DNA of 64,000 bases from Alistipes sp. (GTDB lineage Bacteria; Bacteroidota; Bacteroidia; Bacteroidales; Rikenellaceae): assembly GCA_017463615.1 (NCBI GenBank), contig JAFTOU010000016.1, forward strand, positions 1 to 64,000, in the 5' to 3' direction. The position numbers and the translations under genes are program-made. The notes beneath the pieces are model-generated. The model did no database searches, was not told where the DNA came from, and saw nothing but the letters and a program-made list of their open reading frames with translations. Below, in pieces: positions 26,978 to 58,256 of the stretch (the first letter of the stretch is position 1; every line of letters begins with the position of its first letter).

Positions 26978-27139
26978 ATGAAAAAGTATCGTTGTACAGT
27001 ATGCTCCTGGGTCTACGACCCAGAGATTGGTGACCCCGACAGCGGCATCGCCCCCGGCACCCCATTTGAGGACATCCCAGATGACTGGACCTGCCCCCTC
27101 TGCGGCGTCGGCAAAGAGGACTTCGTAGCGGAGGAGTAG
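26978..27139 (+). CDS. Rubredoxin
   Basis: A 53-residue rubredoxin, of the usual length. The four iron ligands sit in two CxxC motifs: C6-x-x-C9 ([11 protein letters not shown]) and C39-x-x-C42 (TCPLCGVG). The family-specific [24 protein letters not shown] and the C-terminal acidic tail are all present. It is the third gene of a redox operon with a NifX-like and a DUF4405 protein. Rubredoxin passes single electrons, typically in oxygen or peroxide detoxification in anaerobes; the partner here is not visible. Confidence 0.95.
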
Positions 27140-27187: not shown

Positions 27188-27295
27188 TATTAAGGGTTAT
27201 TAAAGAGTATTAAGGGCTACTAATGGTCGCGGAACGCGACGCTACGCAGTACAAAAGTTTGCGCTACCCTTAGTAGTCCTTAATAACCCTTAATA
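27188..27295. repeat. Large imperfect inverted repeat
   Basis: The left arm (27188-27222) contains TATTAAGGGTTATTAA and CTACTAA; the right arm (27270-27295) is its complement, ending CTTAATAACCCTTAATA. The left arm has an extra ATTAAGGG copy. The centre holds a small GTCGCG-GAA-CGCGAC hairpin. Together with the neighbouring array and the structured element it fills the 322-base gap after rubredoxin; no gene is present. It may end transcription of the redox operon. Confidence 0.6.
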
Positions 27296-27332: not shown

Positions 27333-27464
27333 AATTTTGGTGTCAAAATGCGGTAGTAGGCGTACATCGTGCAAAAAAGTAGCATCGGATAGTACTAAAA
27401 GCGTACAGCCGATGCTACTTTTTAAGGGATGTGCGGCTAATGCCGTATTTTCACGCCAAAATTA
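27333..27464 (+). ncRNA. Structured repeat element, copy A (probable RNA)
   Basis: A 132-base extended hairpin. The outer helix pairs ATTTTGGTGT with ACGCCAAAAT and AAAATGCGG with CCGTATTTT; an inner helix pairs GTACATC with GATGTGC; the apical helix pairs GTAGCATCGG with CCGATGCTAC around a GTAC...GTAC loop. Copy B at 50088-50217 has the same loops but different helix sequences. The mismatched positions pair as G-U only if the plus strand is the RNA. The last three bases are the reversed stop codon of the minus-strand acyl-CoA synthetase gene, as in copy B. The apical stem with T-runs could also end transcription in both directions. Confidence 0.6.
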
Positions 27465-29102
27465 GTCCTTTTTCTTGCCGCGGCCGTCATATAGGAATCT
27501 GCGAATCTTCTTGGATGGCGTCTTAACAAACTCCTCCTCTTCCTCTACGACTTCGGTGATGCGGGAGTTGCGGTTTACCTTGGAGTTGATCCACTGCTTG
27601 ATATCCTCCATAATCTCGTCGCGAACCTTGGACCACTCCTCCTTCTTCTCCTCAAGGTCATCCATAAGCTCCTCATAGCGAGCCTTGATAGCCTCCATAT
27701 CAAAGTTTACGAGTGCGACAAGGTGACCCTCGTGCTCGGTAACCAGAGACTCGTTGATAAAGACATGCTGGTTGAGCACGCTCTCAATATCCTCTGGGTA
27801 GATATTCTCGCCACTTGGGCCGAGAATCATATTCTTCAGGCGACCCTTGATATAGAGCCAGCCGTCCTTATCAAAGCATGCCAGGTCGCCAGTGCGGAAC
27901 CAACCATCCTCGGTAAATACAGCCGCGGTAGCCTCTGGGTTCTTGTAGTAGCCGACCATCTGGCTTGGGCTCTTGACAACAAGCTCGCCAATGCCCTCCT
28001 CGTTAGGGTTCTCAATACGACCCTCAACGCCCTGAAGCAGTGGACCTGTAGAGCCGAGGCGGAGCATACCATCCACAGCACCCGCAAGCAGCGGAGCAGT
28101 CTCGGTAAGGCCATAGCCGATATCGTAGATGAACTTAGCGTCAAGCAGGAACTGCTCCACAGTAGAGTCCAACTTCGCACCGCCGATACCGAAGAAGCGG
28201 ACACGACCGCCGAAGGTCTTAGTAAGGGTCTTACCAGCCACGCGGTGGAGCATCTTGCGGATAAAGCCTACGCCATAGAGCGTGCGCATAACGGCGTTAG
28301 AGGTGAACTTCTTAAGCACAGCGCCGCGATAGATCTTCTCAATAATAAGCGGCACGGTGAGCATAATTGTCGGGCGAACCTCCTTGAGTGCCGGCAGCAG
28401 CGTAGATACGGTCGGAGCCTTATCCAGATAGACCACATGGCTACCGTGATAGAAGGCAAGAATAAGGCCGATAGTACACTCATAGGTGTGTGCCAGAGGC
28501 AGCACAGAGAGGAAAATATCGGTCTCGTAGACCATAAAGAGCTTGTCAATCATCCAGAGCTGCGAGCAGAGGTTGTAGTGGGTAAGCATCACGCCCTTAG
28601 GCTGCGAAGTTGTACCCGAGGTGTAGATGATAGCAGCCAAATCGTCAGGCTTTGGCAGAGCGGTAGAGCCATTGCCACCCTTGACATTCTGAGAGATAAC
28701 GCCCAGATTCTTCGTACGCACAACAAGGTGCAGCTTATCGGCAGTCTGCTTAGAGAGCTTGGAGAAGAGGCGGTCTGAAACAAAGAGAGCCTTGGTCTCC
28801 GAGTGCTCTACAATACGGTCAATATCCTCCGATGTGAAGTCGGGCATAATTGGCACAACTACATAGCCTGCCGAGGTGATTGCAAAGTATGCCACGCCCC
28901 AGTTTGGCACGCTACTACTCAAAATTGCTACGCGATCGCCTGGGTGAATGTCGGCATCTATAAGCATTGACTGAATCTGCTCAATGCGCTTGCCAACCTC
29001 GCTATAAGTTACCTCGGCGCCACGCCATAATGAAAAGGCAGTACGAGTAGAAAACTTCTTCAAGCTGTTCTGAAGAACCTCGTACAATGTCGTTAAGTTC
29101 AT
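27462..29102 (-). CDS. Long-chain fatty acid-CoA ligase (AMP-binding enzyme)
   Basis: A 546-residue adenylate-forming enzyme. The P-loop-like motif is IIYTSGTTSQPKGVMLTH, the A4/A5 motifs are at FGIGGAKLD and YGLTETAPLL, and the A7-A8 hinge is GWFRTGDLACFDKDGWLYIKGRLKN. The C-terminal catalytic Lys lies in the KTPSKKIRR tail. It activates a fatty acid with ATP and CoA at the cytosolic side of the membrane. A -7-type box (TAAATTTG on the minus strand, 29182-29189) lies about 80 bases upstream. Its stop codon coincides with the edge of the structured element at 27333-27464. Confidence 0.92.
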   Translation of the reverse strand: MNLTTLYEVLQNSLKKFSTRTAFSLWRGAEVTYSEVGKRIEQIQSMLIDADIHPGDRVAILSSSVPNWGVAYFAITSAGYVVVPIMPDFTSEDIDRIVEHSETKALFVSDRLFSKLSKQTADKLHLVVRTKNLGVISQNVKGGNGSTALPKPDDLAAIIYTSGTTSQPKGVMLTHYNLCSQLWMIDKLFMVYETDIFLSVLPLAHTYECTIGLILAFYHGSHVVYLDKAPTVSTLLPALKEVRPTIMLTVPLIIEKIYRGAVLKKFTSNAVMRTLYGVGFIRKMLHRVAGKTLTKTFGGRVRFFGIGGAKLDSTVEQFLLDAKFIYDIGYGLTETAPLLAGAVDGMLRLGSTGPLLQGVEGRIENPNEEGIGELVVKSPSQMVGYYKNPEATAAVFTEDGWFRTGDLACFDKDGWLYIKGRLKNMILGPSGENIYPEDIESVLNQHVFINESLVTEHEGHLVALVNFDMEAIKARYEELMDDLEEKKEEWSKVRDEIMEDIKQWINSKVNRNSRITEVVEEEEEFVKTPSKKIRRFLYDGRGKKKD

Positions 29103-49974: not shown

Positions 49975-49986
49975 AATATAACAAGC

Positions 49987-50020
49987 AAAGACCTCCCAAA
50001 AGGAGGTCTTTGTTGTTTTG
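49987..50020 (+). terminator. Terminator after the lipoprotein gene
   Basis: The hairpin AAAGACCTCC-CAAAA-GGAGGTCTTT is identical to that at 49195, followed by GTTGTTTTG. It ends 68 bases before the structured element copy B. Confidence 0.85.
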
Positions 50021-50087: not shown

Positions 50088-50217
50088 TATTTTGTTGTCA
50101 GAACGCGGTAGTAGGTGTGCATCGCGAAAATAGCCCGGATGGGTTGTACTTGAGCGTACTACCCATTCGGGCTATTAAGGGATGTGCAGCTAATGCCGCG
50201 TTATCACAACAAAATTA
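50088..50217 (+). ncRNA. Structured repeat element, copy B (probable RNA)
   Basis: A 130-base extended hairpin homologous to 27333-27464. Outer helix ATTTTGTTGT with ACAACAAAAT, then ACGCGG with CCGCGT; inner helix GTGCATC with GATGTGC; apical helix TAGCCCGGATGGGT with ACCCATTCGGGCTA around a GTAC...GTAC loop. The strings GCGGTAGTAGG and TTAAGGGATGTGC are shared unchanged with copy A, while several helix pairs changed on both sides. Its last bases are the complement of the stop codon of the PpiD-like gene. Unlike copy A it lacks strong T-runs at the apical stem, so termination alone does not explain conservation. Confidence 0.6.
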
Positions 50218-52236
50218 GAAGTAGCCGACGGTGTTATCCTCAATGTTAGCCAACTCCTGCACTGCGTAGAATGCGCGGGTTGCGCTCTGCTCGGCAGCTG
50301 CCTGCTGCTTAACCTTCTCAGCCTCGGCGGTCTGAGCCTCAGCGGCAGGGGTTACGGTATCAGTAACGAGGACATAAACGCCGCTTGCGCCCTTGATAGG
50401 AGCTGAGAGCTGACCCTGTGGCAGAGAGGTGATTGCGCCAAGTACGCGAGGCTCTACGCCCACGCCTGGAACATAGTATGCGTCATACTTCACATTCTCA
50501 AAGGTCTTAACCTCGCCCTGAGTAGCTGCAGCTACCTCCTCAATAGTTGCGCCAGTCATAGAGGCTGCAATCTGCTCAAACTTCTTATCGCGCAGAAGGG
50601 TGCTCTTAATCTGAGGAGCTACCTCCTTAACGGTGCGGTACTCGTTGTCGTTGATACCTGTGAGGGTTGCGATTACATAGTGGTTGTTATCCAGCTTGAT
50701 AAGCTCTGAGATATCGCCCACCTTAGCCTTATTTACCCAGTAAACCAACTCCAGAGAGTTAGACTCAATACCGCGTACGGCGCGAGCTGCGTGCTCAACA
50801 GTAGCGGTGCGAGAAGCCTGTGCCTGAGCGGTTACGGTAGCATCAAAGCCATCGTTCTGAGCGTTTACAGCGAAGAGGCTTGCAGCGTTGTGAACATCGC
50901 GCTGAGTCTGAGCTGAAGCAACGAGTGGATAGCTCAGTGTAGCGAGCTTATAGTGCTTCTGGATAGCGTTTACACCCTCAACCTTGAGAATCTGGATAAC
51001 ATTACCCATAACCAGCTTAACGATGTCGCCCTTCTTCTTACCTACCAGTGCATCTGCGAACTCTGGAGCAAGTGAAGCGTAGGTAACCTCGCCAATCTTA
51101 CCACCATCAGCAGCGGTCTGAGCCAGAGAGTGAGCAGCAGCCAAAGCAGCGAAGTCGCCACCCTTAGCAACATTTACGAGGCTATCAGCCAGCTCGGTAT
51201 CGGTATAGTTGAGAACGATGTGGCTCAGGGTATACTTCTCAGGTACATTGCGCACCTCTGCTACGCGAGCAGCACGCCACTCGTCAGCAACGAGAGTAGG
51301 GCCATACATCTTACCCTTAGTCAGAGCCTCGCTCTCCTCTGCAGTCATCTGAGCTGCAGTGATATAGGTCTGAGCGATAGCAGCGTGGCGGTTCTCACGA
51401 GCGTAAGACTTGAGGTCATCAACAGTAGCAAACTGCTCTGCAGCAGCCTTAGCCTCAGCCTCAACAGCAGCCTTATCTGCATCGGTTGCAACAACCTCAT
51501 ACTCAACGAAAGAGATTGTGCGGTATGGAGTCTGCTTGTACTGGCTCTTGTGAGCGTTGTAGTAAGCCTTAATCTCGCTATCAGAAACGGTTACCAGAGA
51601 GTCTGCAACAGTGTTGTAGCGGCTAACAACATAGCGACCACCGAAGCTGTTGTTTGCAGCATTTACGCCACGCTCAACCTCCAGAGCAGTTGCATAAGCG
51701 CCCTTCTTTACAAGCTCCTGATACTTCATCATCGCGCGGTCGATATCAGCCTGCTTGCTCAGGAAAGACCACATCTGCTGAGCCTGTGGGTTGCCCTCTA
51801 CCTGAGAGAGGAAAGCGGTTACAGCCTCAAGGCTATACTCGCCAGTCTGAGGGTTGCCAAATACGCTACCGAAGACATTGCTTGCACGCTCGCCACGAAC
51901 CATAGCCTTGTGCTCTGCCTCGCCTACTGCAAGACCAAGCTCCTCAAAGCCAGGGGTGAATACATGGTCTGAGAGCAGAATCTGCCAAGTGCTTGCCAGT
52001 GCCTGCTGAGCAGCCTGATCGGTATTAAGCTCGCCCATCTGTGCCTTTACATCGTCATAAGCAGCAAGGAACTCTGAGTAGTGAATCTCCTCGCCGTCAA
52101 TTGAACCTACCTCTGGATCGTTGCCAGAGAATCCCATCTCTGTCTTCAGAGAGAGGATGAACGCCAAAAGTGCGCCTGCGATAATCACTGAGAGCAGTAC
52201 GCCAAATTTGGTTCTTAAAGTATTCAAAGTTACCAT
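50215..52236 (-). CDS. PpiD/SurA-like periplasmic peptidyl-prolyl isomerase
   Basis: A 673-residue foldase. One N-terminal membrane anchor (about 13-31, GVLLSVIIAGALLAFILSL), a SurA_N-like helical region (about 35-290) and a parvulin domain at about 330-440 (TLSHIVLNYTDTELADSLVNV, then FAALAAAHSLAQTAADGGKIGEV). A long helical C-terminal part follows. It helps outer membrane proteins fold in the periplasm. It ends the coaX-to-ppiD gene run on the minus strand, 122 bases after the CNNM gene, and its stop codon touches copy B of the structured element. Confidence 0.9.
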   Translation of the reverse strand: MVTLNTLRTKFGVLLSVIIAGALLAFILSLKTEMGFSGNDPEVGSIDGEEIHYSEFLAAYDDVKAQMGELNTDQAAQQALASTWQILLSDHVFTPGFEELGLAVGEAEHKAMVRGERASNVFGSVFGNPQTGEYSLEAVTAFLSQVEGNPQAQQMWSFLSKQADIDRAMMKYQELVKKGAYATALEVERGVNAANNSFGGRYVVSRYNTVADSLVTVSDSEIKAYYNAHKSQYKQTPYRTISFVEYEVVATDADKAAVEAEAKAAAEQFATVDDLKSYARENRHAAIAQTYITAAQMTAEESEALTKGKMYGPTLVADEWRAARVAEVRNVPEKYTLSHIVLNYTDTELADSLVNVAKGGDFAALAAAHSLAQTAADGGKIGEVTYASLAPEFADALVGKKKGDIVKLVMGNVIQILKVEGVNAIQKHYKLATLSYPLVASAQTQRDVHNAASLFAVNAQNDGFDATVTAQAQASRTATVEHAARAVRGIESNSLELVYWVNKAKVGDISELIKLDNNHYVIATLTGINDNEYRTVKEVAPQIKSTLLRDKKFEQIAASMTGATIEEVAAATQGEVKTFENVKYDAYYVPGVGVEPRVLGAITSLPQGQLSAPIKGASGVYVLVTDTVTPAAEAQTAEAEKVKQQAAAEQSATRAFYAVQELANIEDNTVGYF

Positions 52237-57945: not shown

Positions 57946-58084
57946 AGTCTCTCGCTCTCTATGCGGCACATATTGCCGTTAAATTGTATATTGACATTCC
58001 CTCCAAACCTCCCTTTGCAAAAGGGAGGCTTAGTCGCTACGCTCCGAAATTGTGGAATGTATTGCCCGTATCAATAATTAAATT
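57899..58084. repeat. 35-base direct repeat of the coaX 5-prime coding region
   Basis: 57899-57933 (inside coaX, codons for DTGNT) and 58050-58084 (non-coding) are identical over 35 bases and 151 bases apart. The copy carries no extended coding frame and lies next to a hairpin (CCTCCCTTTGCAAAAGGGAGG). It marks a local duplication or a rearranged insertion. Confidence 0.85.
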
Positions 58085-58256
58085 CACCATTGGCTGTTGG
58101 CTATTAGCTATTGGCTATATAGCGGAATTATGTTATTATTGTTATTTTTTCTATACTAAGTCCTTAACTATCTGCAAGTTATTAAACACACATCCGCAGA
58201 GCGGATACCTCTAAAAAGCCAATAGCCAATGGCTAACGGCTAATGGCTAATCTAAC
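58085..58256. repeat. GGCTATT-type repeat element between coaX and mfd
   Basis: A plus-oriented array (ATTGGCTGTTGGCTATTAGC, 58087-58118) and a mirror array (AGCCAATAGCCAATGGCTAA, about 58218-58252) flank a core with CCGCAGAGCGG and CCTCTAAAAA. The arrangement, arrays in opposite orientation around a core, resembles the elements near 43077 and 63300. No gene is present in this 301-base gap (57946-58246). Confidence 0.65.

What the first reader, a model, noticed from the sequence alone, without database searches (positions are those of the whole stretch)
27333..27464. Element A: helices change, loops stay (with copy B at 50088-50217)
Two elements 23 kb apart share GCGGTAGTAGG, TTAAGGGATGTGC and a GTAC...GTAC apical loop, while paired positions differ in both strands (for example ATTTTGGTGT/ACGCCAAAAT versus ATTTTGTTGT/ACAACAAAAT, and TGCGG/CCGTA versus CGCGG/CCGCG). 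That is covariation, the mark of selected RNA structure. Pairs that are not Watson-Crick are G-U when the plus strand is the RNA and A-C when the minus strand is, so the plus strand is likely the functional one. Known bacterial RNA families do not obviously match.
Basis: seen in the sequence. Interest (0 to 1): 0.8.

Follow-up and report, generated by a model that had tools for sequence, protein, structure and literature searches.

The report
One-way mobile DNA hairpins after genes
The two elements belong to a large family of about 130-letter fold-back sequences that have spread through the chromosome of gut bacteria related to Alistipes, mostly sit right behind the stop signals of genes, and in this genome nearly all point the same way relative to DNA copying; what moves them is not known.

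Summary
A and B are 2 of 136 places in this 2.38-Mb Alistipes-like genome. The family was found in 23 of 37 sampled genomes of the genus and 0 of 24 genomes of other families. The plus strand folds better in 136 of 136 copies with DNA parameters; in folds that forbid G-T pairs, 1x1 mismatches are G-T 193 times and A-C 17 times. The right end lies within 15 nt of a stop codon in 102 of 136. In this genome 115 of 119 copies follow their contig's majority orientation, which fits GC skew in 7 of 7 contigs tested; in other species polarity is weaker (40 of 46). Near-identical copies at unrelated places show dispersal. Stems seem to change as two-armed blocks, so the covariation is not simply stepwise compensation in an RNA. 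Best reading: dispersed hairpins that act through one folded DNA strand, work like REP or attC sites, and double as terminators. No Y1 transposase was found (0 of 61 genomes), no integron integrase above cut-off (0 of 61). The mover is unknown.

The parts
27333..27464 (+). Element A, module type X, full hairpin; the plus strand is the folding strand
27333..27343 (+). A, outer stem 5' arm (pairs with 27453-27463)
   Evidence: fold; outer stems seem to be exchanged as blocks
27453..27463 (+). A, outer stem 3' arm
27345..27355 (+). A, second stem 5' arm (pairs with 27441-27451), next to the conserved TCA / TCAC positions
27441..27451 (+). A, second stem 3' arm
27374..27423 (+). A, inner hairpin with A-tract and T-tract, apical GGATAGTACT..GTACAGCC loop; terminator-like in both directions
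   Evidence: the simple terminator scan found no site
27462..29102 (-). Gene abutted by A (AMP-binding enzyme, PF00501); its TAA stop (27462-27464) overlaps the element's end
   Evidence: sequence
26978..27139 (+). Left neighbour of A, rubredoxin (PF00301), so A lies between convergent genes (missed by the 80-aa ORF limit)
   Evidence: sequence
50088..50217 (+). Element B, module type X with GGGTTGTACT..GTACTACCC apical variant
50129..50176 (+). B, inner hairpin
50215..52236 (-). Gene abutted by B (SurA-like peptidyl-prolyl isomerase, PF13623/PF13145/PF13616); TAA stop at 50215-50217 overlaps the element's end
   Evidence: sequence
49984..50014 (+). Separate simple terminator-like hairpin behind the left, plus-strand ORF near B

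Best explanation
A and B are members of a dispersed family of ~130-nt hairpin elements of Alistipes-like bacteria whose function and spread depend on one DNA strand folding as a long stem with conserved internal loops (TCA/TCAC; CATCG..GGGATG or ACGCTCGG..TAGCGG; GATA-GTAC..GTAC-AG and variants). They work like REP or integron attC sites: a strand-discriminating hairpin recognised in single-stranded DNA by a still unknown enzyme. They are kept directly behind stop codons, where the A-tract/stem/T-tract core can serve as a transcription terminator for the abutted gene. In this genome they survive almost only in the orientation that puts the better-folding strand on the leading-strand template, because the opposite orientation would put a stable hairpin on the lagging-strand template, where it would be excised or deleted. 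Shown: family, structure, one-strand folding, position behind stop codons, replication polarity in this genome, dispersal, mosaic stems. Inferred: single-stranded DNA as the acting form, the unknown recombinase, the terminator role, and survivorship as cause of the polarity.
For: 136 places in the genome; plus strand folds better in 136/136 (DNA parameters) and 135/136 (RNA), G-T 193 versus A-C 17 1x1 mismatches in G-T-free folds; 77/78 in other species. Orientation: 115/119 copies follow the contig majority, 49/51 of those between convergent ORFs (57/58 with a 50-aa ORF limit), while non-abutted left ORFs are split 63/68; element-oriented third-position GC skew is negative in 7/7 contigs tested and 15/16 stretches with enough genes on both strands. 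Right end within 15 nt of a stop codon 102/136, left end 1 (97-103 and 1-2 with other ORF limits); 58/78 in other species. Dispersal: copies 99.2% identical at unrelated loci with flanks about 55% identical; at 43 gene ends matched in other species, 27 carry an element-like end, 8 another hairpin with a GTAC-type loop, 8 none (by motif). Mosaic: 100% identical cores with different complementary outer stems. A run of 4 or more A in the left inner arm (U-tract for the abutted gene) in 110/132. [quoted passage not shown]
Against: No candidate enzyme: Y1 transposase 0/61, integron integrase above cut-off 0/61, reverse transcriptase 20/61 without relation to element number. Polarity is weaker in other species: of 18 named contigs with at least 2 copies, 12 are uniform and 6 mixed, 40 of 46 copies on the majority strand. 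Known ssDNA elements (IS608) use the lagging-strand template (PMC6006769, passages), the opposite strand. No clean empty site or target duplication was found; left flanks are mostly not conserved between species. No transcription or excision data. Leading-strand assignment rests on the general rule that the leading strand is G-rich (recalled) in an unfinished genome. The simple terminator scan finds none in A and none in B's own hairpin. Four of 119 copies break the polarity.
Confidence: 0.4

Rival explanations
1. Plain bidirectional transcription-terminator cassettes, spread and homogenised by gene conversion between copies, without a dedicated mobile system.
For: Position behind stop codons; A-tract and T-tract of at least 4 around the inner stem in 83/132; several distant members of the genus have short hairpins with U-tracts, of intrinsic-terminator look, at the same gene ends (by eye); mosaic modules fit gene conversion.
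Against: A terminator needs only the inner hairpin; outer stems lie beyond the termination point yet are kept paired. A bidirectional terminator needs no replication polarity and no strand bias. In convergent pairs the other gene's stop is almost never abutted (1 left end).
Confidence: 0.28
2. A functional plus-strand RNA (antisense or small RNA).
For: Structure and pair changes, G-U on the plus strand.
Against: Plus strand is antisense to the abutted gene; both neighbouring ORFs antisense in 51/136 or 41/136 by ORF limit; no clear promoter-motif excess; replication polarity unexplained; over 100 dispersed, turning-over copies.
Confidence: 0.13
3. REP elements moved by a RAYT/Y1 transposase, or another classical MITE.
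For: Dispersed intergenic palindromes behind genes, some providing stop codons, as reported for REPs (PMC3733652, section 15); YGTC motif beside a stem.
Against: No Y1_Tnp in 61 genomes while 5 of 14 controls ring; 130 nt rather than 20-40; terminal stems vary in both arms, unlike fixed transposase-binding ends.
Confidence: 0.1
4. Orientation reflects replication-coupled insertion (group II intron-like or ssDNA transposition into the fork) rather than survival.
For: Near-uniform polarity in this genome; tandem doublets and nested copies in one direction.
Against: Reverse transcriptase not linked to element number; folding strand is the leading-strand template; mixed contigs in other species.
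Confidence: 0.09

Closest known systems
REP elements (GTAG/CGTC-tagged) and TnpA-REP/RAYT
   Same: Dispersed intergenic palindromes close to gene 3' ends, sometimes supplying the stop codon (PMC3733652, abstract and sections 6 and 15 read; PMC6006769, passages)
   Different: REPs are 20-40 bp with 8-9 bp stems in the CGTC families; these are ~130 nt with mosaic stems; no Y1 transposase in 61 genomes
Integron attC sites
   Same: Long imperfect hairpin, one recombinogenic strand, mostly on the leading-strand template (PMC5371416, PMC11023631, PMC8946536, passages)
   Different: Dispersed copies, mostly single, next to ordinary genes, no cassette arrays, no integron integrase above cut-off, no fixed terminal core sites
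Intrinsic (Rho-independent) terminators
   Same: Inner stem flanked by A and T tracts, behind stop codons
   Different: Further stem layers outside, replication polarity, strand-specific wobble pairs
Palindromic candidate structured RNAs of human microbiomes, e.g. HMP2_4205 (132 bp, mostly Bacteroidetes)
   Same: Length, phylum, palindromic, predicted terminator (PMC8040213, passages)
   Different: Sequence could not be compared here; identity with this family unknown

Membership tests
REP / RAYT system | Cognate Y1 (HUH) transposase in the genome | tested here: not met
   PF01797: 0 of 61 genomes of the genus at E 0.001, genomes incomplete; 5 of 14 controls ring; own genome 0
REP / RAYT system | 20-40 bp palindrome with GTAG or CGTC tag at one end | tested here: not met
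   Copies measure mostly 120-130 nt; YGTC lies beside the outer stem, not at the end
Integron attC | Integron integrase present | tested here: not met
   TIGR02249: 0 of 61 genomes above cut-off; sub-threshold matches in 61 of 61 and in 14 of 14 controls
Integron attC | Conserved complementary terminal core sites (R boxes, recalled) | tested here: not met
   Outer stems are of 11 types among 124 parsed copies
Intrinsic terminator | Stem directly followed by a U-tract | tested here: inconclusive
   Run of 4+ in abutted-gene direction 110/132, other direction 84/132; scan finds none in A, only the separate hairpin near B
Intrinsic terminator | RNA 3' ends at the hairpin | not testable with these tools
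   No transcript data
Known structured RNA (Rfam) | Match at gathering score | tested here: not met
   0 matches among 4227 families in the window
DDE-transposon MITE | Fixed terminal inverted repeats | tested here: not met
   Outer arms differ between copies with identical cores
DDE-transposon MITE | Target-site duplication | tested here: inconclusive
   None seen by eye at the ends of 11 near-identical pairs; no empty site to compare

The most novel reading that the evidence does not exclude
A new class of mobile genetic element: nested, modular hairpins recognised as folded single-stranded DNA by an undescribed recombinase, whose stems are swapped as two-armed cassettes at conserved internal loops, which replace gene terminators across the chromosome and survive mainly with the folding strand on the leading-strand template.
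Probability: 0.31. Interest if true: 0.87.

Novelty: new variant of a known kind. Interest (0 to 1): 0.7.

Why it matters
At least 136 places in this one genome, nearly all obeying one replication polarity, give a natural experiment on how hairpins are tolerated on the two replication strands. The exchange of both arms together shows how a set of repeats can look like covarying RNA without stepwise compensation, a caution for covariation screens. If a dedicated enzyme exists, it would be a single-strand recombination system without Y1 transposase or recognised integron integrase.

Tried and rejected
Rfam: no family. Y1 transposase: none found. Reverse transcriptase: present in 20/61 genomes but not linked with element number; the rich genomes G010, G016, G020, G027, G034 lack it, G000, G005, G024, G028, G036 have it. 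Integron integrase: none above cut-off. Phage or plasmid carriage: no type-X pattern in viral contigs, no blastn match of A in plasmids or phages; two type-Y pattern matches in viral contigs fall inside ORFs and give no model match, so I take them as chance. Upstream promoter for the plus strand: no clear excess. Insertion of cores into resident mini-hairpins: only one 44-nt mini-element among the stretches searched, and the end patterns suggest one more at C40:224621-224666. Gene-strand bias as cause of polarity: rejected. A GGTGCA guide pairing with the upstream TGCACC motif: GCACC in the last 30 nt upstream occurs with both module types (28 of 79 X, 23 of 53 Y), so not module-specific. PMC8946536 and PMC5771137 were read in passages only; the latter describes other repeats (BrickBuilt/MITEs) of Porphyromonas gingivalis.

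Dropped rows and limits: 7 of 143 model matches before counting 136 (150 of 846 candidates scored); copies on contigs with fewer than 3 copies were left out of 115/119; 124 of 136 copies parsed, 132, 131; 78 of 170 matches used (the 79 rows of at least 74 bits less one cut off at a stretch end; the rest are opposite-strand or weaker matches). One search lists only 100 of its 112 places. Two of 45 comparisons fell away. The search over relatives used stricter filters and scored at most 56 candidates per genome. Neighbour genes are ORFs of at least 80 aa, not annotated genes; this misses the 53-aa rubredoxin left of A and so calls A a tandem case; counts with 50 and 120 aa are.

Full report
OBSERVATION. 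Elements A (27333-27464) and B (50088-50217) are as described. Each is one long hairpin; the plus strand folds much better than the minus strand as RNA and as DNA (A -43.1 versus -30.4; B -45.3 versus -32.7 kcal/mol).

FAMILY. blastn with A lists 48 matches in the own genome, opposite-strand ones included. A model from 29 copies lists 143 matches in 2.38 Mb; after removal of 5 opposite-strand duplicates and 2 contig-end fragments, 136 places remain. This is probably a lower bound: 150 of 846 candidates were scored, and end patterns show further copies (for example C3:22435-22586). Among 61 genomes, 23 have matches, all within the 37 sampled genomes of the genus; 0 of 24 genomes from other families match, under stricter filters and with at most 56 candidates scored per genome. 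An exact-pattern scan of named species genomes gives 67 stretches, all labelled Alistipes or Rikenellaceae; those whose titles name a host come from herbivore guts. Copies in other genus members keep the general architecture but differ in most stems (by eye).

ANATOMY. From outside in: an outer stem ATTTTnnnG/CnnnAAAAT; conserved TCA / TCAC positions; a second stem; a middle module of type X (GGTGCATCGTG..AAGGGATGTGCC) or Y (ACGCTCGG..TAGCGG), 79 and 53 of 136 copies with 4 unassigned by motif; an inner stem with A- and T-tracts; and an apical GTAC-stem loop with variants. In 29 copies, 25 of 48 pairs have both-side changes and 97.8% of cells pair, against 83.0% in shuffles. In 76 copies from other species (74 distinct) 36 of 48 pairs have both-side changes.

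ONE STRAND IS SELECTED. With G-T pairing forbidden during folding, 1x1 mismatches inside helices are G-T 193 times and A-C 17 times, and in 2x2 loops 140 and 4 times; other 1x1 mismatches include G-G 44, T-T 42 and C-C 27. The plus strand folds better in 136 of 136 copies (DNA) or 135 of 136 (RNA), and in 77 of 78 copies of other species. By my inference, C-to-T bias on the exposed lagging-strand template would give the opposite asymmetry.

POSITION. The right end lies within 15 nt of the stop codon of an ORF on the element's minus strand in 102 of 136 copies; the left end does so for a plus-strand ORF once (97-103 and 1-2 with other ORF limits). Left ORFs are plus in 68 and minus in 63. Both neighbours are antisense to the folding strand in 51 copies, or 41 if ORFs down to 50 aa are counted; A itself lies between convergent genes, because its left neighbour is a 53-aa rubredoxin. 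In other species 58 of 78 abut a stop codon.

REPLICATION POLARITY. On contigs with at least 3 copies, 115 of 119 copies share the contig's majority orientation; between convergent ORFs 49 of 51 do (57 of 58 with a 50-aa limit). In 20 further stretches of 16-20 kb plus the window, read in the element's plus direction, third-codon-position GC skew averaged over both gene strands is negative in 7 of 7 contigs (-0.044 to -0.095) and in 15 of 16 stretches with more than 400 third positions on each strand; genes there are 183 minus and 140 plus, too weak a bias to explain the polarity. An earlier, smaller sample from the flanks was noisier: read in the element's plus direction the mean was not negative for C57, C7, C36 and C14, nor for C23 and C39, which had no plus-strand ORF of 150 aa. 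In other species the polarity is weaker: of 18 named contigs with at least 2 copies 12 are uniform and 6 mixed, 40 of 46 copies on the majority strand, while the pooled element-oriented skew is negative on both gene strands (-0.086, -0.024). By the general rule that the leading strand is G-rich (recalled), the folding strand is the leading-strand template.

DISPERSAL AND EXCHANGE. Copies up to 99.2% identical sit at unrelated loci with flanks about 55% identical in global alignment, which I take as unrelated. At 43 gene ends matched in other species, the other species has an element-like end (27), another hairpin with a GTAC-type loop (8) or none (8); this is by motif, several comparisons share a site, and the other-species stretches were mostly fetched because they hold a copy, so these are not frequencies. 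At site A, G036 and G028 carry a different subtype, G027 and G005 other hairpins, and several more distant species short terminator-like hairpins (by eye). Cores that are 100% identical carry different, each self-complementary, outer stems (GGCG/CGCC versus AGCG/CGCT; GTTG/CAAC versus CGCG/CGCG). Of 50 pairs with cores at least 96% identical, 31 differ in the outer stem and 19 share it, against 1161 of 7626 sharing it among all pairs, so there is some linkage. Four-combination counts are 83 of 442 (outer/second stem), 57 of 402 (outer/inner) and 20 of 285 (second/inner); recurrent mutation could give part of these, but three changed pairs beside an unchanged core cannot easily arise by point mutation. 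So stems seem to be exchanged as two-armed blocks, by gene conversion or by recombination at the loops; pair changes among paralogues should not be read as independent compensatory mutations. Nested copies and tandem doublets occur.

MECHANISM. A terminator explains position and the inner hairpin, but not the paired outer stems, the wobble asymmetry or the replication polarity. A plus-strand RNA explains the wobble asymmetry, but not position, polarity or the missing promoter signal. [quoted passage not shown] I therefore prefer strand-discriminating DNA hairpins that double as terminators, with survivorship as the cause of polarity. The enzyme is unknown: no Y1 transposase, no integron integrase above cut-off, no link with reverse transcriptase.

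KNOWN OR NEW. REPs are reported mostly within 20 bp of gene ends and can supply stop codons (PMC3733652, section 15), so dispersed palindromes behind genes are a known kind; size, mosaic layers, absence of the transposase and polarity set this family apart. My seven literature searches listed no paper whose title or shown abstract describes it; subscription papers are not covered, and most listed papers were not opened. A human-microbiome survey lists palindromic candidates, one of 132 bp mostly in Bacteroidetes (PMC8040213, passages), which could be related but could not be compared.

Noticed in passing
window 27188-27295: A second long inverted repeat (TATTAAGGG..CCCTTAATA, 81-90% complementary) lies just left of A; similar TTAAGGG palindromes precede several copies elsewhere.
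   Followed up: no
window 58078-58255: Long inverted repeats of GGCTATTGGCT / AGCCAATAGCC type; similar motifs border several copies in other contigs.
   Followed up: no
C3:5256-5387 (L007), C40:176236-176367 (L022) and C64:65208-65342: A different hairpin (ACCCTGCGATTAAG..GGTGGC) sits inside the conserved TCA position of three copies, as a nested insertion.
   Followed up: partly
C64:21794-21857, C64:204567-204666 and others: 30 of 100 listed left-end matches are not at the start of a model match; 12 of them lie within 152 nt of one, like remains of earlier copies; 26 of 30 share the contig's majority orientation.
   Followed up: partly
L080-L088: Other species of the genus have one to six matches each, several of divergent architecture (TTTTAGGTGAG..CCGCATAAAA), perhaps older relatives.
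   Followed up: partly
left flanks of many copies: A short motif GCACC-N17-TGCACC is frequent just left of the elements (GCACC in the last 30 nt of 28/79 X and 23/53 Y copies; 3 and 2 in a control stretch further upstream), unexplained.
   Followed up: partly
contigs C7, C23, C28, C35, C36, C53, C65: Several contigs end inside or close to a copy or a left end, so the repeats probably fragment these assemblies and are undercounted.
   Followed up: no
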